DNA from: Hufsiella ginkgonis
GTDB taxonomy: Bacteria > Bacteroidota > Bacteroidia > Sphingobacteriales > Sphingobacteriaceae
Assembly: GCF_009834915.1 (NCBI RefSeq)
Contig: NZ_WVHS01000002.1
Span: 682,001 to 746,000, forward strand
DNA: 64,000 bases
Direction of reading: 5' to 3'
Position 1 is the first letter of the stretch. Every line of letters begins with the position of its first letter. A program made the position numbers and the translations under genes. Below are positions 24,842-37,252 of the stretch, piece by piece. The notes below the pieces were generated by a model. That model had not been told where the DNA came from. It searched no databases and saw nothing but the letters and a program-made list of their open reading frames with translations.

Positions 24842-25340
24842 TCAGGATTTGCCTTTCAGCTTGTAACCTATCGGTGGTTTTTCCAGCTTTGGCTCGTCTT
24901 TCTTTTCCAGCAGTTCATCCAGGTAGCGGAACACGATCTCCATATTCTTGTCCTGGTTGTCCAGCTTTTTTTTGATCTTCTCGATCTCCAAACGGATCTC
25001 GGTATTATCGGGCCAGCATCTGCCTGATCCGGGTAAAGATCCTCATGATCTAGATGTTCACCGAGATCGCCCGGTCGCTATTCAGGATGCCCGATAACAT
25101 CGCTACACCCTGTTCGGTGAACGCATAAGGCAGGATCCTGGTACCGCCCCATCTTGCTATTCCATTTTGGAAGAGCAAGTTTTTGAACTCCTCGTCCAGC
25201 CGGAACATGAAGTCATCAGGGAACCGTTTGAGATTACGGGCTACGGCCTTGTTCAGGTTACCGGTGGTCACCTCGTAAAGCTCTGCTAAGTCTTTGTCCA
25301 GCATTACTTTATAACCCCGGATCACATAGATCTTATTCAT
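24842..25340 (-). pseudogene. ORF6N-domain protein, inactivated by nonsense and frameshift
   Basis: Start [20 protein letters not shown] and [20 protein letters not shown] are the ORF6N (KilA-N-like) DNA-binding domain found in phages and mobile elements. An in-frame TAG at 25050-25052 replaces the expected Gln (NI-Q-IMRIFTRIRQML), and one extra base near 25011 shifts the rest, which then reads DNTEIRLEIEKIKKKLDNQD and ends PPIGYKLKGKS at TGA 24842-24844. Repairing both recovers a full-length ~165-residue protein. Confidence 0.88.
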
Positions 25341-25432
25341 TACAATTCATCGGGGATCATCAGGTTAGGTGCCATAATTGAGGTTTAACGGAGGACGCAA
25401 TCTGCGACCTCCAAAGATATTTATCTGCTCTT

Positions 25433-26040
25433 TTACTTCAATGGATGGAACTTATTCAATGCCTCTTTCAGGTTCTCCAGGTTGGTCGTTTTATACAGCT
25501 CCGTCGAACTCACGTATTTATGGCCGACCATGTACTGAACGATCCGCAGGTTCTTTTCCTTTAACCATTCGGTGATCACGCTTTGCCGGATCTGCATGGC
25601 GTTCTTTACTTTCGGATCGATTCTTTGCAGCGCATATTTCAGGTGAAGCATAGTATTTTTCAGGCTCTTCAGGTCATTTCTGCCGGTAAACAGCCTTTCC
25701 GTTTTGCGTTGCAGTTTTGGCGTACCAGCAGCACGTATTCCTGCAGGTCGATCACCTGGTGAGGTTCCAGTCTTAGGATCCTGCCATTAAGTTTCCCGGT
25801 TGCCAGTACCTGTATTTTGCCTTCCCGGAGTTTGAGATGTTCAGGCCGCAATGTTTCCAGTTCTTCCCTTGTTAAGCCCTGGTACACCAGCAGTCCCAAG
25901 ATCACTTTGTTCCGGTGCGTCCGCTCGTCCCTGATCTCATACCGCTCGTACAGGTTTTCAAGGTTAGCCTGGTGCTGGCTGATCGTTTTCGAGGCCATCT
26001 TCTTTTGTGCCAGGTAGTCATTAAAGTTAAGCGGGGACAT
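25433..26040 (-). pseudogene. Tyrosine recombinase/integrase broken by a frameshift
   Basis: Two frames make one integrase. The first (26040 to 25669) has the N-terminal SAM-like and catalytic start (VILGLLVYQGLTREELETL). It shifts near 25690 in a run AAACGGAAAGG; the other frame continues AKTERLFTGRNDLKSLKNTM and ends with the catalytic block RQSVITEWLKEKN, VQYMVGHKYVSSTELY. The C-terminal His/Tyr region is intact. A single-base indel separates them, so activity is probably lost. It may once have mobilised this island. Confidence 0.85.
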
Positions 26041-26379: not shown

Positions 26380-26892
26380 CTACCCTTTTCGGCGAATATA
26401 GTAAAGCTTGTTTGTCGCTGATGAATAAAGGAGAAAATATTGTTCTGTGTCGCTAATTGATATATAACTGTAGAAATTTCGGGGATTTAGTATCTCGTTT
26501 TTAAATGAAATACCGCAATCAGAAGTGTTAAGATTATTGGCTCCTATAATAAATCTATACAGGTTTATAACATCTTTATTAATAGGACAATTCCGCCATT
26601 TACCAATAGTTGTTTCCTTGGTAGCAGTACTATTCTCCCAATTACTAAACTGAGGATAATCATTGTTAATCTTGACATCATCAAGAGAATACACATAAAG
26701 CTCAAAAAAATCCCCACTTGTAGTGATGCCGATGAAGTCTTTTTTGCAAAGAACTTTTGCGTTACCCTTGTAGCCTTCGAATAAGCTAGTAAAATCAACT
26801 TTCTTTAAAGGGTCGAAAGAAATTTCGTTATAAAATAAATACGAGGCTACTAATAGTAACAAAACAAATAGTAATATAAATGTTTTTTTCAT
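26380..26892 (-). CDS. Membrane-anchored protein, candidate immunity for the orphan RHS C-terminus
   Basis: 170 residues with an N-terminal TM anchor (ILLFVLLLLVASYLFY) and an extracytoplasmic domain with three Cys. No family is recognised. It starts 7 nt after the RHS C-terminal module and is strikingly AT-rich compared with the GC-richer flanks, as is that module. In RHS polymorphic toxin loci the small gene after a C-terminal tip encodes its immunity protein, so that is the inferred role. Confidence 0.62.
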   Translation of the reverse strand: MKKTFILLFVLLLLVASYLFYNEISFDPLKKVDFTSLFEGYKGNAKVLCKKDFIGITTSGDFFELYVYSLDDVKINNDYPQFSNWENSTATKETTIGKWRNCPINKDVINLYRFIIGANNLNTSDCGISFKNEILNPRNFYSYISISDTEQYFLLYSSATNKLYYIRRKG

Positions 26893-26899
26893 TGTTAAT

Positions 26900-27634
26900 T
26901 TATTTAACTACAGGCACAGTTGCGTGGCCATAACCTCTAATGTCATAATCTTTCCCGTCATTTGCCCCGCCTGGTCTACCCGCCCAGGTAGCAACATTTC
27001 TTAGTGGTCTATTTTTTTGCATGTCGAATTTATACCTATCTACCTTGTTTTCATTTCCAATCATCACAGCCCCTGTTTTTGAATCCAATAGGGTCATATT
27101 TAACGATCCGTATACCTTACCTGTAGTAGTCAACCCGTTGTCGCCTCCTAGATTCCAAACAAAATTTTTAGAAAATGTGCCACCATCTTGATTCCCGAAT
27201 GATGCGGTAGTTACGCCAGGAAGATTTATTTTACTCTCGTCTACAAATAATGGATCTCCAGATTTCCCATTCCACCAAGCATCAGCCTCGGATTTGGTTA
27301 AAAAACCATCATAGTCAGGTCGATCTTTTAAGGTAACGTAGCTAGCGGCGTATTTATTTGCAGCTTCTTTACTATCAAATCCGTAATTGGGATCGCCCTC
27401 TTTATAGGTGCTATTTTTTACTGCTTCGTCATGACTCATTCCTTGTTTAAAGTCCTCTTTCTTCATAACTATAGCTTGTCCCTGTAATCCCTTATCATCC
27501 GTGCCTAACAACGAGCCGTCTGTGCCATAAATGGGATTAGGTGCCATCCCATCAGGATCTATAAACCTCAAAGGATTGTTGAATCCATAATTATAAGGAG
27601 AATGTCTCCTCATCTTCTCCGCCAAAGGGTCCAC
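26900..27634 (-). CDS. Orphan RHS C-terminal module (rhsCT)
   Basis: Read from GTG 27634, 244 residues; the frame is open back to 27682 where [19 protein letters not shown], the end of an RHS core, directly follows a stop. The core motif [14 protein letters not shown] marks the boundary; the following ~200 residues are the variable tip, beginning [18 protein letters not shown]. The main RHS gene at 30359 has the same core end but a different tip, so this is a displaced alternative tip. It lacks its own promoter and translation start signal. Confidence 0.75.
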
Positions 27635-28568: not shown

Positions 28569-29321
28569 CTACGATCTCGATTTCCCTGCCGATCTCCCGC
28601 TGTAGTTCTTCTTCTGTAGGCAGATAGGTCTTGTATTTGAAGCGAAGATCTGTTTACTGTCACTCAATAGACTGTATTTTGCCAGGGCGTTATTCTTCTC
28701 GGCGCAGAGGATCAGCCCGATCGTCGGGTTATCGTTTTCCTGCCGTACCTGGTCTTCGAAGTACCGCACGTACATATCCATCTGTCCGATATCCTGGTGG
28801 GTCAGTTTCCCGGTTTTAAGATCGATCAACAGGAAGCATTTCAGGATATAGTTGTAGAACACCAGGTCGATATAAAAGTGTTCATACTCGGCGCTGATCC
28901 GGCGCTGTCTTCCCACAAAGGAAAAGCCTTTCCCAAGCTCCAAAAGGAACTCCTGCAATTTGTCGATAATGGCCTGTTCCAGCTCCCGCTCATAAAAGCC
29001 GGTGTTCGGTTTCAGGTCCAGGAACTCCAGCACGTACGGATCCTTGATAATGTCCCGGGCCTGCAATTCTTCTTTTTTGCTTTCCGCTTCCTGTTTTACC
29101 AATGGCTTTCCCTCCGTGCCGCTTAATAATATTCGCTCGTAATAAAAGCTGTTGATCTGTCTTTCCAGTGTCCGGGTACTCCAGTTGCCGGCGATCGCTT
29201 CGGTCACATAGAACGACCTTGCCGCTTCTTTTTCAACCTTTAACAGGAGCCGGTAATGTGTCCAGCTCAATTCGTCACGCAGTGCGTGACCTTTTTCAAA
29301 CAAGCTGTAGAACTGGCGCAT
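28569..29321 (-). pseudogene. PDDEXK nuclease (YhcG/DUF1016 family), truncated at both ends
   Basis: The protein begins inside the family at MRQFYSLFEKGHALRDELSW, missing ~100 N-terminal residues; an in-frame TAA sits just upstream. The nuclease core is clear: YEHFYIDLVFYNYILKCFLL, IDLKTGKLTHQDIGQMDMY. Near 28640 one base is lost: the printed end (SNTRPICLQKKNYSG) is out of frame, while the neighbouring frame restores KYKTYLPTEEELQREIGREI. The family acts in DNA processing and often travels with restriction or mobile loci. Confidence 0.8.
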
Positions 29322-29747: not shown

Positions 29748-30359
29748 TCAATGCGTTGGGCCTATCTTATTTGTATCGACAGCATTTAGTTCTATCAGTT
29801 CGTCCATGGTTTTCGCCGGGACACCTGAGCCTCCCGGAATATCAAACGACAGGTAGTTTAACGACCCATTAAAAGAAGTTGACGTAAACGTGTTTTTGCG
29901 ATATTCCTTCACCTCGCCAGTAATGTCATCGTTTTCTTTGAGTATTACCGGAGTGAAGCCCTTTTCGAACTTCTCTTGATCAATGTAGCCAACGCCATAA
30001 TCGTTCAAAATGATCTTATCAGTACCCTCGGGGCTTTTCGAAACAAACAACCTTACTTCACCGGAGTAACCCGGCTTTACTACAACTGTACACGTCGGCT
30101 TAGAGGTCGCCCCTAAATATACCAGGCAAAAGATGGCTGCTACGCTTAGGGAAAGCGTGACCACACTCCATTTGAGCTTAAAAACCGCCTTAACAAGCGC
30201 TCCTACTCCCAGGGACGCACTCAATACAACAACAGCCAATACGATAAGAATATACCACGAAGGCAGGATCATCGTAGGCGCTTCTAATATTGTGTAACAT
30301 CCATAAATCAGTACCAGCAATGCCAGTATTCCAACGATGATCTGTATTCTTGATTTCAT
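29748..30359 (-). CDS. Membrane protein coupled to the RHS gene, candidate immunity
   Basis: 203 residues: three TM helices in the first ~95 residues (IQIIVGILALLVLIYGCY, ILIVLAVVVLSASLGVGAL, TLSLSVAAIFCLVYLG) and an extracytoplasmic beta-rich domain (about 95-203). Its ATG overlaps the RHS stop by one base (TAATG), so it is translated with it. The family is not recognised. Position and topology fit an immunity protein that protects from a secreted tip acting at the envelope. Confidence 0.65.
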   Translation of the reverse strand: MKSRIQIIVGILALLVLIYGCYTILEAPTMILPSWYILIVLAVVVLSASLGVGALVKAVFKLKWSVVTLSLSVAAIFCLVYLGATSKPTCTVVVKPGYSGEVRLFVSKSPEGTDKIILNDYGVGYIDQEKFEKGFTPVILKENDDITGEVKEYRKNTFTSTSFNGSLNYLSFDIPGGSGVPAKTMDELIELNAVDTNKIGPTH

Positions 30360-33300
30360 TAATTGCGCTTGTAAAACTTGGAAGGATAATAAGAGAAGTC
30401 CCGAATAGGCAGCGATCCCGAAGATGGACTGGAGGAACCAACTATCGGAGCGGAATGAGTGCCTATGAATGACGGTTGATTATACTGCATGATCTTACTC
30501 CCGTTCATCTTCAAAGTAGCCGATGGAAAAACGTTCGTATAAGCCGAAACCGACAAAGCTCCGTTAGCTCCATTATAGCTTATATTCATCTTTTGTGCAA
30601 CGTCCACTATTTTGAAGCCGATACCATTTAATGCAAACTCCTCTGATTTGGATACACTTGCGTGCTGTTCAAAAGTCAGATTATAGGAACTCAGGCCGCC
30701 GTTTGACGTTTTACTACTGCTCGAAGTAAGCATGTTGTTACTGCCTCCCTCGCCAGGGTAAGAGTCTCGTGCTAAGCCGAACGGTGTGTCTCCAACAGCC
30801 ACCGACTTGGTAGCGGAGATGCCGGTTAATTCTCCGCTATTGTTTTCACTGGCTTGGAGCGTTACGGTACTGGTTAATTTATCTCCCGACGGATCGACTA
30901 GGCCGAACAACGTTGGCCCATCCCATTTCCCGCCATCAATATAACTGTTGAATGCGAACGTCAGCGTTTTGCCTAAATACGTTTCTCCCTGTTGGGTCGA
31001 TGCCTGTGAATTAGCATCCTTGTCCCATCTAACATTTCCTTCCTGGTCCTTGACCCAATCAAAAGGTGCCCTGCCATCAGGATCAATAAAACGCATGGGG
31101 TTATTGAATCCGTAACTGTACGGGGAGAACCTCCGCATTTGCTCGGAAATTGGATCAATCGTGTTAAATCGCCCCGTTACGGGATCGTACATTCTTGCTC
31201 CGAAGTCATAGTAACCTAGTTCTTCCTGAAGCTCCTTCCCATTATAAAGATACTTACTTACATTCCCCGGTACCGTCACCGCATATTGCATCCCGAACGG
31301 GTAGTAGTTGTCTGCCTGGATCACCCTCGCGGCGCCCGCGTAAATATCGAAGCTTTTTCTTACGTTTCCTAAGTGATCGGTAAGATTATACTCGAACCTG
31401 TAAGAGTTGTCCGATTGCCGTACCGCTCTTCCTTCTTCCGTCTGGATGAAATTGATCACATAGCTGCCGCTGACCGTGCCGTAGTGGATGCCGCCGACGT
31501 AATCGGTAGTTCCTGTGGTACTGCTCGCTTTGCGGAGCTTGTTGCCTGCCGCGTCGTAGGTATATACGATCTCCGTGCCGTTCACCGTTGCCGGCAGGTT
31601 CAGCAGGTTATAGGTAAGGGTTTTATTGTTGCGGCCGTCGGTGGTGGCGTTCCCGTTGCCGTCATAAGCGTAGCTCCCCGTGCTCCATGCCCCTGAGATC
31701 CCGTTCAGCCGGTTACCGGTGTAGGTATAGTTCCCCCTGCTCCCGTTCCGCTCCAGGCGGGTAATGTTGCCCATCGGGTCGTAGGCCAGCCTTTCCCGCA
31801 TGGCCGAGTCGGCGCTTACGCCGGCGGTAAGACGGTTGAGCTTGTCGTAGTAGTACTTGAACGTATTTGTAAGGCTCCCCGCCGTCCCCCAAAGCTGGTT
31901 AGCGATGTTCCCGTTAAACTGCTTTACCGTACCATCCTCGTAGTTCAGCCCTATGGCCAGCTGCGGGGAGGTACTGCTCTTCAGCCAGCCGCGCGGGTTG
32001 TAGACGTAGCTGGTTACCTGCAAGCTATCGTGCAGACTCTTCTGCTTTAGCTGTCCAAGCTCGTTGTATTCTATGTCCGAGGTTTTCACCTCCGCGCCTG
32101 AATTGATCTTTACGAATGTATTCTTCTTCCTCCCCGCCGGATCGTACTCGTACCGGGTGGCGATGGTGGCGCTCCCGCTCACGCTGATATGGATGCGGGT
32201 ACCGGAGATCAGCTCGCCGGTGAAGCCGTATACGTTGTCGGTGATGTCCGTTCCCCCCAGGTGGTTCCCGCTTTTGGACTGGACCACCCGGCCCTCCTTA
32301 TCGTAATAGTTTACGGACAGCAGCATGATGTCACTCCCCAGTATGTTCACCTTAGTGCCCGTTAGCAGGCCTCTTACGTTCTTGTCCTGGCCGGCGGAGC
32401 CGAAGGTGTTCCCCAGGAAATCGTAATCGTCGTAATAGCTGAGGGTATGATACCGGTCCACCCCGCTGGTGGGGAGATTGTTATTGGTATAGCCCGTGCC
32501 GGAAGAGGATGCGTTCGCATTGTCGCGCGCTTCCCACAGGTAAGGCTGGCCGTTGACGCTGGCTTGCCAGGTATCTCTTGAAGAGCCGCTCGAGGCGATC
32601 CCCGTAATGACGGCCCTGCCCATCACGTCGTACTTGGTAAAAAGCCACTTGTTGTTCGTCCGCTGCACCGAGTCCTGGGTCATCACCACTTGGTCGAGCT
32701 TGTTGTAGACGGTGTATTCCCAGCCCTTGCCCGGCACCTTCTTTTCGATGAGACGGTGACGACCATCGTAGCGGTACTGGTAGCAGAAGTCGTCAAGCGC
32801 CGGTTGGCCGAGACCGGTGGTATCGGGGTTCGCCCCCGGCGGAAGCACGAAGCTGAGGTTACCTTCGGCGTCGTACACATAATAAGTCGACAGGGCTTCC
32901 AGGCTGTTATCGGGCTTTTTGTTGATGAGGCGCTTAAGCACCACACGGCCCTGCTTGTCCTTGTATTCCTCGATGGTGCCGGCCTTGCCGTCGGCGCTCA
33001 GCCAGTTCTCGTCTTTAGTGATGGTGAGGGTCAGTTGGTCAGCATAGTAGAAGCCGGAGGTAGACAGGCGGCGTTTGTACAACTGGCCACCGGTGGGAAC
33101 CGTATCGGCTTTCCAGAGGCGTACACCGAAACCGGTGGAGGTGAACGCCCCGCTGTTGTCGTTGGCGCCCAATACGGTGAGAACGGTACGGCCGGCGGTA
33201 TCTGTGCGTGCGGCCGAGGGTCGCCAGGCCTGCCCGGGAGCGCCCTGCTCCGGCACACGGCCCAGCTGCGAGGGCTCGAACACGGTGCGGGCGTAGGGAG

Positions 33301-33868
33301 CAATGGTGGTGGCATGGTCGCTGCCGCTTTGGTAAAAAGTATACTGGGCGCTGCCGGTATAGCCGCCTGTGCCCGCCAACGCATCGCCCCGGTAAGCGCC
33401 CGCGCTGCCGGCAGTGGTGGTATAAGGCTGATATTTGATATTTTCCCGGCCGAAGGCATCGTAAGCTTGCGGCTGCACTACGTCTTTCCCCGTAGGACTG
33501 CCCTTTACCTGTACGGTTTGCAGCGGGCGACCAAGCCCGTCGAGGTACTGCACCACCTGGCTTACCTGGCAATTGGTGGCCCCTGTATCGGTGGACACCC
33601 CTTCCTTTTTCATGGTGCTTACGATCACGTAGTTGCGCGAGCCGGTCGGGGCGGTGGCCAGGATAGCGCAGCCTGCCGCGTTGGGTGTGAGGCGGGTCCG
33701 GAAATACCGGATGCCGCCCGTGTTAAACCCTGCCGCCAGGCGAATGGTGTCGGTAGCCGTGATCTCGCTCTGGCCATGGTAGGCGCTGGCGATAACCGAC
33801 CGCTGTGCCCGGGCATTGAAACACACCGCCACGACCAGTAAGGTGATGTATACCCGCAGCTTTTTCAT
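30359..33868 (-). CDS. RHS/YD-repeat protein with DUF6443-type N-terminus and variable C-terminal tip
   Basis: Start set at ATG 33868 (signal peptide MKKLRVYITLLVVAVCFNAR); an ATG 12 nt upstream overlaps the previous gene. About 1169 residues: the N-terminal DUF6443-type region (VQYLDGLGRPLQTVQVKG), many YD-repeats, the RHS-associated core (RYEYDPAGRKKNTFV, FEYNLTDHLGNVRKSFDIYA, ARMYDPVTGRFNTIDPISEQ) and core end YGFNNPMRFIDPDG. The last ~210 residues are a unique Ser/Asn-rich tip with no recognised toxin motif. RHS proteins form shells that hold a C-terminal effector. Confidence 0.9.
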   Translation of the reverse strand: MKKLRVYITLLVVAVCFNARAQRSVIASAYHGQSEITATDTIRLAAGFNTGGIRYFRTRLTPNAAGCAILATAPTGSRNYVIVSTMKKEGVSTDTGATNCQVSQVVQYLDGLGRPLQTVQVKGSPTGKDVVQPQAYDAFGRENIKYQPYTTTAGSAGAYRGDALAGTGGYTGSAQYTFYQSGSDHATTIAPYARTVFEPSQLGRVPEQGAPGQAWRPSAARTDTAGRTVLTVLGANDNSGAFTSTGFGVRLWKADTVPTGGQLYKRRLSTSGFYYADQLTLTITKDENWLSADGKAGTIEEYKDKQGRVVLKRLINKKPDNSLEALSTYYVYDAEGNLSFVLPPGANPDTTGLGQPALDDFCYQYRYDGRHRLIEKKVPGKGWEYTVYNKLDQVVMTQDSVQRTNNKWLFTKYDVMGRAVITGIASSGSSRDTWQASVNGQPYLWEARDNANASSSGTGYTNNNLPTSGVDRYHTLSYYDDYDFLGNTFGSAGQDKNVRGLLTGTKVNILGSDIMLLSVNYYDKEGRVVQSKSGNHLGGTDITDNVYGFTGELISGTRIHISVSGSATIATRYEYDPAGRKKNTFVKINSGAEVKTSDIEYNELGQLKQKSLHDSLQVTSYVYNPRGWLKSSTSPQLAIGLNYEDGTVKQFNGNIANQLWGTAGSLTNTFKYYYDKLNRLTAGVSADSAMRERLAYDPMGNITRLERNGSRGNYTYTGNRLNGISGAWSTGSYAYDGNGNATTDGRNNKTLTYNLLNLPATVNGTEIVYTYDAAGNKLRKASSTTGTTDYVGGIHYGTVSGSYVINFIQTEEGRAVRQSDNSYRFEYNLTDHLGNVRKSFDIYAGAARVIQADNYYPFGMQYAVTVPGNVSKYLYNGKELQEELGYYDFGARMYDPVTGRFNTIDPISEQMRRFSPYSYGFNNPMRFIDPDGRAPFDWVKDQEGNVRWDKDANSQASTQQGETYLGKTLTFAFNSYIDGGKWDGPTLFGLVDPSGDKLTSTVTLQASENNSGELTGISATKSVAVGDTPFGLARDSYPGEGGSNNMLTSSSSKTSNGGLSSYNLTFEQHASVSKSEEFALNGIGFKIVDVAQKMNISYNGANGALSVSAYTNVFPSATLKMNGSKIMQYNQPSFIGTHSAPIVGSSSPSSGSLPIRDFSYYPSKFYKRN

Positions 33869-33869
33869 G

Positions 33870-35390
33870 TTAGTTGCCATAATGGTAAGTGAACGTTTTT
33901 ACGGTATTTCCCCCGGTATCTTTAATGGCCCGCAGGCGGCGGAACACATCGTACTGGTAATACGTGGTTACGCCCCTGGAATCGATAGACGACCAGGTGC
34001 CGACCTGCGGCAGGTAAGTAAAGGTGCTTAGCTGTGCGTCGGCCGGGTACACGCGGATATCGTCGTAATACGAATGACCGGAAAGGGCGTAAGAAGAGCC
34101 CGTATAAGGCAGCTCGCCGGAATAATGCCAGCGCTCGTCGGCATCCATATACCAGTAGCTGATCACGTAGCCGCGGGCATTGGGGAGCGTAAAGCTCACG
34201 GTATATGCACTTCCGCTGCTGCGGGAGGTGCCGGTATGGGAGGCGTTGCTGGCGCTTCCACCGCCCGCCTCGAAATCCTGCAGGTAGCATTCTGTGCTTA
34301 ACGCGTTTTTGATCTCGGCCACGGGGTACTGCTGGTTATAGCCCCAGCGGTAGCTGATCTTCGGGCCGGAGGCCATGGAAACAGTCACGGGATTGCCCAG
34401 GTTGTCGTAGGCGCTATACTCGATGCGGTCTTCGGCGCTTTCGTTCTTATGCTGGGTCTGTATCTTATAAAGCAGGTACGGGGTGGTGTTGGCCGAGAGC
34501 GCATTGCTGTAGGTATTGATGGTTTTCTCCTGGAAGGCGCCGTTCACGAAATCCTTTTTCTCTGCCAGGGCGGTCACCTGGTTCTGGTCGATCATGGCCT
34601 GGTAGGGTATTGTGGCGCCTGCCGCCACTTTCTCGGCCGGGTAAAGAAACGTACTGTAGCGCACCAGGCCGTCGCTGCCCGTGGTGGTGGTTTTGGTGGG
34701 CTGCAGGTGGGCGGCGTTGGCGTACTCGGTGAGGGTAACGGTTTGTACGGGCCGGGACGTCCCGGCATCGTAATTAACCGAGATCGTACTGTCGCTGTAC
34801 ACCCAGTTGGTGCTCAGGGTGTACATGGACAGATCATAGGGGTGCAAACCGGTGAATACGGGGTCCTCCCAGTTCTTGCGGGCCGCATAAGCGGTCACCG
34901 GTGTACCCATCACCGTATTTACATAATGCTGCCGGGTTTCCTGCAGCTTTACCAGCTCACCCGGACCACCGGACTTGTATTGAACGGTGCGGACCTCCAG
35001 TGCCTGCGGCGTACCGTCCTGGTAATAGGGCGCGTGGGGCACTCCGCCGCCGCGGATGGTAGCGGCCACCGAATCGGCAGCTACCTGGAAGTGGTGCCAG
35101 GTAGCACCGTTGGTATATGCGGTATCCTCGCTTTCGGTCACGTCCTGGTAAACCACGTGGTTGCCCGTCTGGCTGAACAGGGAAATATTGCCTCCCGAGC
35201 TTGCCGCGTAATAGTTCAGGATCATGGATGAATTGTGCGAAACCTGCCTGACCTCCAGGTTGGAGTAATAGCTGACCTTGCCGTGCATAAGCCTTCCCGA
35301 GGAGAGGGCGGGATCCTCGTGGTCGTAGTACCGGTAAATGCGGGACAGCGTTCTGGTGGTAACGGGGTCGTAGGTGAGCACCTGTTTCAC
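33870..35390 (-). CDS. RHS/YD-repeat-like protein, C-terminal half of a frameshifted gene
   Basis: 506 residues from GTG 35390; this is the 3' part of one gene with the feature at 35408. Before it the same frame reads GHGYTIGSDSIKYHNVAVGG, which joins the upstream part if one base is restored near 35460. The end has YD-like repeats (SRGVTTYYQYDVFRRLRAIK). The reading ends 1 nt before the RHS start at 33868. No signal peptide occurs at its own start, so independent secretion is unlikely. Confidence 0.7.
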   Translation of the reverse strand: MKQVLTYDPVTTRTLSRIYRYYDHEDPALSSGRLMHGKVSYYSNLEVRQVSHNSSMILNYYAASSGGNISLFSQTGNHVVYQDVTESEDTAYTNGATWHHFQVAADSVAATIRGGGVPHAPYYQDGTPQALEVRTVQYKSGGPGELVKLQETRQHYVNTVMGTPVTAYAARKNWEDPVFTGLHPYDLSMYTLSTNWVYSDSTISVNYDAGTSRPVQTVTLTEYANAAHLQPTKTTTTGSDGLVRYSTFLYPAEKVAAGATIPYQAMIDQNQVTALAEKKDFVNGAFQEKTINTYSNALSANTTPYLLYKIQTQHKNESAEDRIEYSAYDNLGNPVTVSMASGPKISYRWGYNQQYPVAEIKNALSTECYLQDFEAGGGSASNASHTGTSRSSGSAYTVSFTLPNARGYVISYWYMDADERWHYSGELPYTGSSYALSGHSYYDDIRVYPADAQLSTFTYLPQVGTWSSIDSRGVTTYYQYDVFRRLRAIKDTGGNTVKTFTYHYGN

Positions 35391-35407
35391 GCGTGCGCCA
35401 CCTACGG

Positions 35408-37252
35408 CTACGTTGTGGTACTTGATCGAATCCGACCCGATGGTATATCCGTGGCCGCGAAGCCCTGGGCTGCCACGCCATTGGAAGAGAGCTGCACGGT
35501 GTAGGTGCCGGGATCGAGGTCTACCTTAAACGAGGCTGCATCGCCGGGGTGCAGCTGCCTGGTATACACCGGTGTGCCCGCCCCATACGCAAAAATGGAG
35601 TAGGTGGATACCTGGTGAATGCCGTCATCGACCCCTGTATTATAAGTACAACTGAATACCACGCTTACCTTTTGGGCAGCAGTGATCACCATGGCCGAAT
35701 CCATTTCTACCAGGCCTCGGTTACCCGTTCCGGTGACGTGGTGCGTGATGGTGGACTTTGGCGCCGGCTGGGTATAGGAAGTATATACGTCATTCGACTC
35801 ATAAACCACCGAGTCCTGCCCTCCCGTGGGATAAATGATCCTGCTCAGCATACCCACCCCGGCAAGGCTGGGATTGGTGCTGCGGTTAGCCGTAGAGTTC
35901 GGGAAATAATTAGCGAGCGAGTCGACGCCCGGCGCCGGTAAAAAGTTGATGTTATTCTGCCCGTTAAAAAAGCCGTATTCATCCTGGGCGAATGCCAGGC
36001 GCGGCGGCAGGTCATTTACCCGGTTATACGCAAAATAATGGTTCTTTACTTCACTTCCTGAAACGGGGTATTCGCTCACCCTTACCAGGAAGGGGCGGTA
36101 ATTAAGCATTGTTTCCCCGGCGATTGCCGTGTAGTAGCTTCCTATGGGCGAAGAAGTGGTATATTCCAGCCCGTAATTCCTCACCGGCACGACGGAGCCG
36201 GGCGCGTATAGTTTTACGGCTGTCACCAGCGAATCGCCCGGGACGTCGGGCCGGCTGCCGTACCAGAACCGCACTTCGCTGCCGTTGGAGGAGACGATCT
36301 TTTGAAGGAATACGCCGTTATTGTAAATGGTAGATGCACAGACCGTGTTGGATGTCAGGTCGGCGGCAGGGACAGAGGGAGGGCTAGACAGTGGGTCGAT
36401 CATTGCGCGCACGGCCGTATAATCCGGCGTAGCCACGCTGTTCTGGGAGAACGACGGCCAGTATTCGAAGCTGTGCTTGCGGTATGTAAAGGTCATGTAA
36501 TTGCCCTGCAGGTCCTCGATGCGTTTGAGGTACCATGCGTTTTCGATGGGGATGCTGTAGTGCTTGCCGCAGTCGGTGCCCGCGCTGCCCGAGCGGGAAC
36601 TTTCCGTGGCGGTGTTTCCGCCGAAAAAATACTTCCGGCCTTCGGCATCGGTGATCCGGAGCGTCCAGGTACTGTCAGACACATAGTGGAAGTTGGTGGC
36701 CACCTTCAGGTTGGAGTGTTCCAGGAAGATCACTTTGGTGCGGTCCGCAGGATCGAGGAAAAAGCGGCCGGAATAGCCGTTGAAGTTGAAGCTGAACACG
36801 TCCGGCTGCGTATCGTACAGGTCGAGGCTTAGTGCCGCATCGGTTAAAAAGTTGGTCGCTGCGGTATCGAACGAGGTGGAAAGGTCTACACCAGGGGGCG
36901 CCGCGCGCCAGGTGGAACGTTCGTCGGCATTGTCATACACCGTACGGTTAACCATCCCGCCGGCGTTAAGCACCCAGCCCATCCCGGCGCGGGAGGCGAC
37001 CTGGTCCACTTTGATACCGCCGGCATTATAGGAGACGGAGATGTCGGTTTTTATGGTACCGGCATTGAGGCTCACCATGGGGATGCTGGTAGCCATGCTG
37101 CCGGTGGTGAGCGATACCGGGACCCTGGCGACCTTGCCAAGCTCGGCCGCGTTTGGCGCCGGCGGCAATACCGAGGGAAGCTGCAGGTTGGTCTGCGCGC
37201 AGCAAAGGTGCGCGGCAAAGACGGCGATGGCTGAAAAAAACACTTTTTTCAT
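35408..37252 (-). CDS. Large secreted RHS-locus protein, N-terminal half of a frameshifted gene
   Basis: 614 residues with a signal peptide (MKKVFFSAIAVFAAHLCCAQ) and an N-terminal domain like those of Bacteroidota YD-repeat proteins (VSYNAGGIKVDQVASRAGMG, WVLNAGGMVNRTVYD). The last residues (ATDIPSGRIRSSTTT) are out of frame with the conserved continuation; one base appears lost near 35460. With the second half it forms a ~1125-residue protein. Whether this is a true mutation, phase variation or a sequence error cannot be decided. Confidence 0.75.
   Translation of the reverse strand: MKKVFFSAIAVFAAHLCCAQTNLQLPSVLPPAPNAAELGKVARVPVSLTTGSMATSIPMVSLNAGTIKTDISVSYNAGGIKVDQVASRAGMGWVLNAGGMVNRTVYDNADERSTWRAAPPGVDLSTSFDTAATNFLTDAALSLDLYDTQPDVFSFNFNGYSGRFFLDPADRTKVIFLEHSNLKVATNFHYVSDSTWTLRITDAEGRKYFFGGNTATESSRSGSAGTDCGKHYSIPIENAWYLKRIEDLQGNYMTFTYRKHSFEYWPSFSQNSVATPDYTAVRAMIDPLSSPPSVPAADLTSNTVCASTIYNNGVFLQKIVSSNGSEVRFWYGSRPDVPGDSLVTAVKLYAPGSVVPVRNYGLEYTTSSPIGSYYTAIAGETMLNYRPFLVRVSEYPVSGSEVKNHYFAYNRVNDLPPRLAFAQDEYGFFNGQNNINFLPAPGVDSLANYFPNSTANRSTNPSLAGVGMLSRIIYPTGGQDSVVYESNDVYTSYTQPAPKSTITHHVTGTGNRGLVEMDSAMVITAAQKVSVVFSCTYNTGVDDGIHQVSTYSIFAYGAGTPVYTRQLHPGDAASFKVDLDPGTYTVQLSSNGVAAQGFAATDIPSGRIRSSTTT

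What the first reader, a model, noticed from the sequence alone, without database searches (positions are those of the whole stretch)
29748..33868. RHS protein coupled to a membrane protein by a TAATG junction
The 1169-residue RHS protein has a unique Ser/Asn-rich tip with no recognised toxin fold. The coupled 203-residue membrane protein is a natural immunity candidate. The locus differs from the orphan tip 3 kb away, as expected for a diversifying polymorphic toxin.
Basis: partly seen in the sequence, partly recalled or inferred. Interest (0 to 1): 0.6.

Follow-up and report, generated by a model that had tools for sequence, protein, structure and literature searches.

The report
Rhs toxin with a membrane immunity partner
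This is probably a weapon-and-antidote gene pair used between bacteria: a large secreted Rhs protein with an unclassified toxin tip, followed by a membrane protein that probably protects the producer; relatives carry the same tip with one of two unrelated membrane antidotes.

Summary
An Rhs gene with a signal peptide (30359-33880, minus strand) overlaps a 203-residue membrane protein (29748-30359) by one base, TAATG. The tip is not unique: 30 distinct Bacteroidota loci carry it. In 29 of 30 the next gene belongs to one of two mutually non-matching families: A (9 loci; three TM helices plus a soluble domain, or in two loci a lipoprotein) or B (20 loci; about 135 residues, four TM helices). The exception is a truncated tip. 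In 395 sampled genomes B was found in two, both beside the tip. A-partnered tips are rejected as one clade (AU p 0.003). Tip and partner are AT-richer than the trunk. Toxin plus immunity is therefore very likely. Loop charges and lipoprotein forms suggest that the antidote's domain is periplasmic, so the toxin probably acts in the periplasm or at the inner membrane. The tip has no Pfam, NCBIfam or PDB sequence match; its model resembles 3c5p (Z 9.9), a protein of unknown function. Toxicity was not tested. Rating: new member of a known kind.

The parts
30359..33880 (-). Rhs polymorphic toxin gene (1173 codons; likely start ATG at 33868, 1169 residues)
33803..33868 (-). Sec-type signal peptide MKKLRVYITLLVVAVCFNARAQ (by eye)
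   Evidence: sequence; no signal-peptide program was run
33197..33607 (-). DUF6443 domain (residues 92-228)
   Evidence: E 2.5e-39
31073..31306 (-). Rhs-associated core (residues 859-936) with Asp909 and Asp933, 24 apart, in DPIS-X20-DPDG
30950..31060 (-). pre-toxin linker (first 37 residues of the tip), shared with other C-terminal domains
30362..30949 (-). beta-rich putative toxin domain
   Evidence: model pLDDT 90.9; GC 0.468 for linker plus domain
30357..30361 (-). TAATG junction: stop of the Rhs gene overlaps the start of the partner
29748..30359 (-). family A membrane partner, putative immunity protein (203 residues)
30105..30356 (-). three transmembrane helices (residues 2-26, 34-60, 64-85)
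   Evidence: model (mean pLDDT 76.4); hydropathy and charges; coordinates
29751..30104 (-). soluble domain, predicted periplasmic (residues 86-203)
   Evidence: lipoprotein forms in L029 and L033
33870..37252 (-). upstream companion gene with signal peptide (by eye), split into two overlapping reading frames (614 and 506 codons), so broken in this assembly
26380..27634 (-). separate orphan Rhs tip (244 codons) with its own 170-residue partner; a different toxin module

Best explanation
An interbacterial polymorphic toxin and its immunity protein. The Rhs protein is exported by Sec (inferred). Its YD-repeat shell probably holds the C-terminal tip, which is cut loose at the aspartyl-protease-like end of the core (inferred from Asp909/Asp933). 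The tip is a 37-residue linker plus a beta-rich toxin domain. It acts in the periplasm or on the inner membrane of the target (inferred). The overlapping gene makes an inner-membrane protein whose C-terminal domain sits in the periplasm and neutralises the tip there (inferred). Shown by comparison: the pairing, its coupling, the modularity and two alternative partner families; membrane location is predicted. Toxicity, cleavage, delivery and the molecular target are not shown. Most likely action: a non-enzymatic attack on the inner membrane, such as an oligomeric beta-pore; that step alone I hold at about 0.35.
For: 29 of 30 tip loci have a family A (9) or B (20) gene next; gap or overlap of at most 10 nt in 25 of 28 measured (L022 not measured, L035 has no partner). 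Among 395 genomes, 4 of 4 with the tip have A or B, against 2 of 391 without it (A at 100 bits or more, or B; Fisher 1.5e-8; cut-off chosen after seeing the scores; counting the faint A matches, 9 of 391). An Rhs core end lies just upstream of the tip in 26 of 28 loci, read by eye. The linker also precedes a GIY-YIG-like domain, E 7e-4, 20.3 bits against a cut-off of 22.6. GC drops from 0.577 (trunk) to 0.468 (tip) and 0.443 (partner). dN is below dS in 5 of 5 close pairs for tip and partner. In 7 of 8 three-helix family A proteins the second loop holds more Lys and Arg than the first, as expected if the C-terminal domain is outside; in L039 they tie. L029 and L033 are lipoproteins with lipobox-like LFGC and LSGC (by eye).
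Against: No toxicity data. The upstream companion gene is split, so this copy may be poorly delivered or decaying. Faint family A relatives exist without Rhs. Charges did not settle family B's orientation. Membrane immunity does not prove a membrane target; it could block uptake. Pore formation rests only on the partners' membrane nature and a beta-rich model; matches to beta-pore toxins were insignificant (Z 3.9 and below).
Confidence: 0.72

Rival explanations
1. The tip is a periplasmic enzyme (cell-wall, lipid II or lipid hydrolase) and the partners are enzyme inhibitors that happen to be membrane-anchored.
For: Invariant polar residues in 27 tips, e.g. Gln132, His133, Glu140, Lys157, His202; lipoprotein partners fit a periplasmic enzyme.
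Against: No enzyme family matched at a curated cut-off; no enzyme fold stood out; family B has only short loops outside the membrane (longest 25-36 residues).
Confidence: 0.3
2. [quoted passage not shown]
For: Zhang et al. propose this for two-helix partners (PMC3482391 passage).
Against: Family A's conserved part is the soluble domain, kept in lipoprotein forms without the three helices.
Confidence: 0.15
3. Not a toxin: tip and membrane protein form a surface or envelope complex without antibacterial action.
For: The tip evolves slowly (dN 0.01-0.11 in five pairs); no activity is known.
Against: Cassette behaviour, orphan modules, exchange between two non-matching partners, and the linker's use before a nuclease-like domain.
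Confidence: 0.08
4. Decayed locus: this copy is a relic because its upstream companion gene is split.
For: Split frames in the window; of 4 paralogue loci found in the same genome with the 506-codon part, 3 lie in single frames of over 1000 codons.
Against: The Rhs and partner frames are intact, and a sequencing error in the draft genome is possible.
Confidence: 0.25

Closest known systems
Rhs/YD-repeat polymorphic toxins (Zhang et al. 2012, PMC3482391; passages and section 36 read)
   Same: Repeat shell, core, variable C-terminal tip, downstream immunity gene, orphan modules.
   Different: The tip matches no Pfam or NCBIfam model. The passage read names two immunity families of two TM helices, some secreted or TM partners of an L,D peptidase, and one lipoprotein family; here one tip has three-helix, four-helix and lipoprotein partners.
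Tse5, Rhs pore-forming toxin (PMC10684867, passages read)
   Same: Rhs shell, aspartyl protease pair near the core end (D1141/D1164, 23 apart; here 24), predicted attack at the membrane.
   Different: Tse5 is a type VI effector and its CT is described as flexible/disordered inside the shell; this tip is predicted alone as a folded beta-rich domain and no VipB sheath gene was found in the genome.
PDB 3c5p, protein of unknown function BAS0735 from Bacillus anthracis (DUF3238 family by recall)
   Same: Best structural match of the tip model: Z 9.9, rmsd 3.4, 150 of 194 residues.
   Different: 13% identity; no DUF3238 match for any of 27 tips; function of 3c5p unknown.
PDB 4k15, Zea/Lmo2686, secreted RNA-binding hexamer of Listeria (PMC6907008, passages read)
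   Same: Second structural match, Z 5.7, rmsd 3.6, 98 residues; secreted.
   Different: Z below 8 may be a common arrangement only; the passages read describe an RNA-binding effector, not an antibacterial toxin.
PDB 4o4a, putative lipoprotein of Bacillus anthracis
   Same: Best match of the partner's soluble domain, Z 8.0, rmsd 3.7, 107 of 143 residues.
   Different: 9% identity, borderline Z, from a model of moderate confidence; no function known to me.
TANFOR polymorphic toxins of Bacteroidetes (PMC7073777; outline and part 1 of the results read)
   Same: Sec signal in most, Bacteroidetes, variable tips with immunity genes, link to type IX secretion proposed.
   Different: Different N-terminal domain; their new tip BaCT is a DNase.

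Membership tests
Rhs polymorphic toxins | RHS/YD repeats and Rhs-associated core | tested here: met
   PF05593 4.9e-12, TIGR03696 9e-18
Rhs polymorphic toxins | variable C-terminal tip directly after the core | tested here: met
   of 16 other matches in the own genome, 11 stop at residue 937-953 of the query, 3 stop earlier, 2 run on (to 1010 and 1085); six of those tips were read and differ; same linker before other domains
Rhs polymorphic toxins | downstream immunity gene specific to the tip | tested here: met
   29 of 30 loci have family A or B next; protection itself not tested
Rhs polymorphic toxins | aspartyl protease motif DPxG-X18/19-DPxG with self-cleavage | tested here: inconclusive
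   two Asp 24 apart in DPIS-X20-DPDG; first motif lacks Gly; cleavage not testable
Rhs polymorphic toxins | toxicity of the tip | not testable with these tools
   needs an expression assay
DUF3238 (PF11579) | sequence match to the Pfam profile | tested here: not met
   0 of 27 tips match it at E up to 1; 0 matches in the own genome, but the 14 control genomes also gave 0
DUF3238 (PF11579) | same fold | tested here: inconclusive
   Z 9.9 to 3c5p; that 3c5p belongs to this family is recalled
Zea/Lmo2686 | ring-forming fold | tested here: inconclusive
   Z 5.7; oligomer not modelled
Helical pore-forming tips (Tox-WTIP) | two membrane-spanning helices in the toxin | tested here: not met
   tip model is beta-rich with one 9-residue and one 5-residue helix
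Imm-CdiI / Imm17 immunity proteins | two transmembrane helices | tested here: not met
   by hydropathy family A has three (two lipoproteins apart) and family B four
Type VI secretion effector | type VI sheath in the same genome | tested here: inconclusive
   PF05943: 0 matches while the E. coli control rang; a divergent sheath could be missed
Type IX secretion cargo | type IX machinery in the genome and use of it by this protein | tested here: inconclusive
   9 PorP-family genes above the cut-off; core machinery not searched, route not shown

The most novel reading that the evidence does not exclude
A beta-rich toxin fold that attacks the inner membrane from the periplasm, countered by two unrelated, exchangeable membrane immunity families, and shared across phyla: the best structural matches of both tip and partner domain are uncharacterised Bacillus proteins, which could be a distant toxin-immunity pair of the same kind, one of them a lipoprotein as in L029 and L033.
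Probability: 0.2. Interest if true: 0.65.

Novelty: new member of a known kind. Interest (0 to 1): 0.42.

Why it matters
It gives a defined, testable toxin-immunity family in environmental Bacteroidota that matched no Pfam or NCBIfam model. One toxin with two unrelated membrane antidotes allows a clean test of whether immunity can be swapped and whether different antidotes hit the same site. If the fold matches hold, it could also suggest a role for structures solved without known function.

Tried and rejected
Searches without result: plasmids with the tip (no match); viral contigs (30 candidates, none confirmed); PDB by sequence (best 2gyk at E 0.67 for the tip profile and E 1.6 for family A); Pfam on 27 tips, 17 B and 10 A proteins (nothing general; best stray scores DUF4479 0.0027 in 2 tips, DUF6168 0.0074 in 1 B protein, Tetraspanin 0.0018 in 3 A proteins); NCBIfam on the window proteins and 8 selected relatives; Foldseek against PDB and viral models (none at E 0.001). 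DUF3238 in the own genome (none, and no control rang, so uninformative). Relation of family A to B was not supported: profile comparison probability 2.5% over 46 columns.

Considered and set aside: family A as a housekeeping membrane protein (faint relatives exist, but the close ones mostly sit with the tip); a tip belonging to Zea or the beta-pore toxins (Z too low). The pdb_via lists cover Foldseek's own candidates only; absence from them excludes nothing. Delivery: PorP-family genes are present and no type VI sheath match was found, but no route is shown. Papers: DUF3238 and DUF6443 each in 0 papers; searches listed no paper that I recognised as describing this tip. Of the papers listed there I read parts only: PMC3482391 (passages, section 36), PMC7073777 (outline, results part 1), PMC6907008, PMC10684867 and PMC10539506 (passages). 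The rest I saw as listings.

Limits: the family labels used profiles built partly from the same proteins (L032, L037 and L056 were not in the B profile and still matched at 3e-41 or better). The tree left out three loci with broken or truncated tips (L022, L035, L052). The 395 genomes appear to be the same set; tips were sought there with one sequence only, so distant tips could be missed. In one search only plus-strand ORFs were printed for loci other than L063, so the neighbours of L066 and L070 were not examined. One search's own count of 26 of 28 includes a false hit (L041) and misses L036; the true exceptions, read by eye, are L041 and L048, again 26 of 28. One search used only the second part (506 codons) of the split gene. 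In one search both partner families print the label A; they are told apart by locus. Signal peptides and lipoboxes were read by eye.
Full report
What is there. On the minus strand, 33880-30359 encodes a 1173-codon Rhs protein (1169 from the ATG at 33868) with a signal-peptide-like start, a DUF6443 domain, RHS repeats and an Rhs core. Its stop overlaps by one base the start of a 203-codon membrane protein, 30359-29748. The core match ends at residue 936; the last 233 residues are the tip. Two Asp residues 24 apart (909, 933) lie where Rhs proteins carry their self-cleaving protease (compare D1141/D1164 of Tse5, PMC10684867 passages), but the first motif is DPIS, not DPxG.

The tip is a family. 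A search of 395 class-level genomes with the tip found it in 4; an alignment search of 395 phylum-level genomes gave 6, two of them linker-only matches; a scan of genome contigs gave 27 loci, all Bacteroidota by title or by the taxonomy shown (Chitinophagaceae, Sphingobacteriaceae, Weeksellaceae, Flavobacteriaceae and unclassified MAGs). Identity to the window's tip is 47-72% over the 26 relatives aligned. With the window, L056 and L022, and counting duplicates once (L021 = L047, L023 = L052), there are 30 loci. Some are full Rhs genes with DUF6443 (4 of 6 scanned; of the other two, L029 is cut at its 5' end); others are short cassettes.

The partner. In 29 of 30 loci the next gene belongs to family A (9) or B (20). 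No protein matched both profiles, and the two families do not align credibly. L035, whose tip is cut short, has neither. For the 28 pairs measured, the partner's start lies within 10 nt of the tip's stop in 25; the exceptions are L029 (24), L033 (72) and the frame-broken L052 (47). In the 395-genome set, B occurred in 2 genomes, both beside the tip. A occurred in 11: 2 beside the tip, one intact solitary copy (G037), one decayed copy (G159), and 8 faint matches in 7 genomes. So the wider A family exists without Rhs, while the close relatives mostly travel with the tip.

Exchange of partners. On a maximum-likelihood tree of 27 tips the A label needs 4 changes where shuffles average 7.6, and one clade for the A-partnered tips is rejected (AU p 0.0034); well-supported branches alone force only one change. 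At least one swap is therefore likely, more are plausible. In five close pairs dN is higher in the partner than in the tip in all five, and dN is below dS throughout.

Where it acts. In family A the first loop holds 0-2 Lys or Arg and the second 2-4; the second exceeds the first in 7 of 8 three-helix proteins and ties in L039. This favours a C-terminal domain outside the cytoplasm. L029 and L033 carry the same soluble domain behind a lipoprotein signal instead of helices. Both facts point to the periplasmic side. Family B is mostly membrane, with loops of at most 36 residues, and its charges do not settle its orientation. Hence the toxin probably works in the periplasm or at the inner membrane. 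This is inference.

Cassette character. Tip and partner have GC 0.468 and 0.443 against 0.577 for the trunk. The first 37 residues of the tip recur before other C-terminal domains in three loci read, one of them matching GIY-YIG at 7e-4, just under Pfam's cut-off; another of the three had no Pfam match and the third was not scanned.

Structure. The tip model is confident (mean pLDDT 90.9, pTM 0.86) and beta-rich. Best match 3c5p (Z 9.9, 150 of 194 residues), then 4k15/Zea (5.7), then rows at 3.9 or less that include beta-pore toxins and many unrelated proteins. Foldseek itself found nothing at E 0.001. The partner model is weaker (pLDDT 76.4, pTM 0.55); its soluble domain best matches 4o4a, a putative lipoprotein (Z 8.0). 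Both top matches are uncharacterised Bacillus proteins. I could not test whether their genes are neighbours.

Verdict. A Bacteroidota Rhs toxin-immunity family that matched no library searched here, with two alternative membrane immunity families. The kind is known. The mechanism at the target remains open; I favour membrane attack over a periplasmic enzyme only slightly.

Noticed in passing
33870-37252: The upstream companion gene is split into two overlapping frames (614 and 506 codons); of 4 paralogue loci of its second part in the same genome, 3 lie in single frames of over 1000 codons.
   Followed up: partly
26380-27634: Orphan Rhs tip with its own 170-residue partner, very AT-rich (GC 0.415 and 0.318); a different module whose partner matches neither partner family.
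   Followed up: partly
28569-29321: YhcG/DUF1016-type nuclease (1.4e-56) that matches its N-terminal domain only from profile position 72, so probably shortened.
   Followed up: no
25050-26040: Short ORFs that look like an ORF6N protein and a tyrosine recombinase fragment (names recalled), suggesting mobile-element debris beside the rhs locus.
   Followed up: no
L047:7364-8561: A second Rhs tip (270 codons) directly followed by a 127-residue membrane protein; no Pfam family at its cut-off. Its GDAFPSAETF stretch recalls the FPSATL motif of this tip, perhaps a distant relative.
   Followed up: partly
L064 (G159): A decayed family A gene of the lipoprotein-like subgroup with four stops; no tip motif was found in the locus.
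   Followed up: partly
L036:6001-9348: Tandem tip-plus-partner modules in one Chryseobacterium locus, the second tip containing HELGH, a metallopeptidase-like motif (recalled).
   Followed up: no
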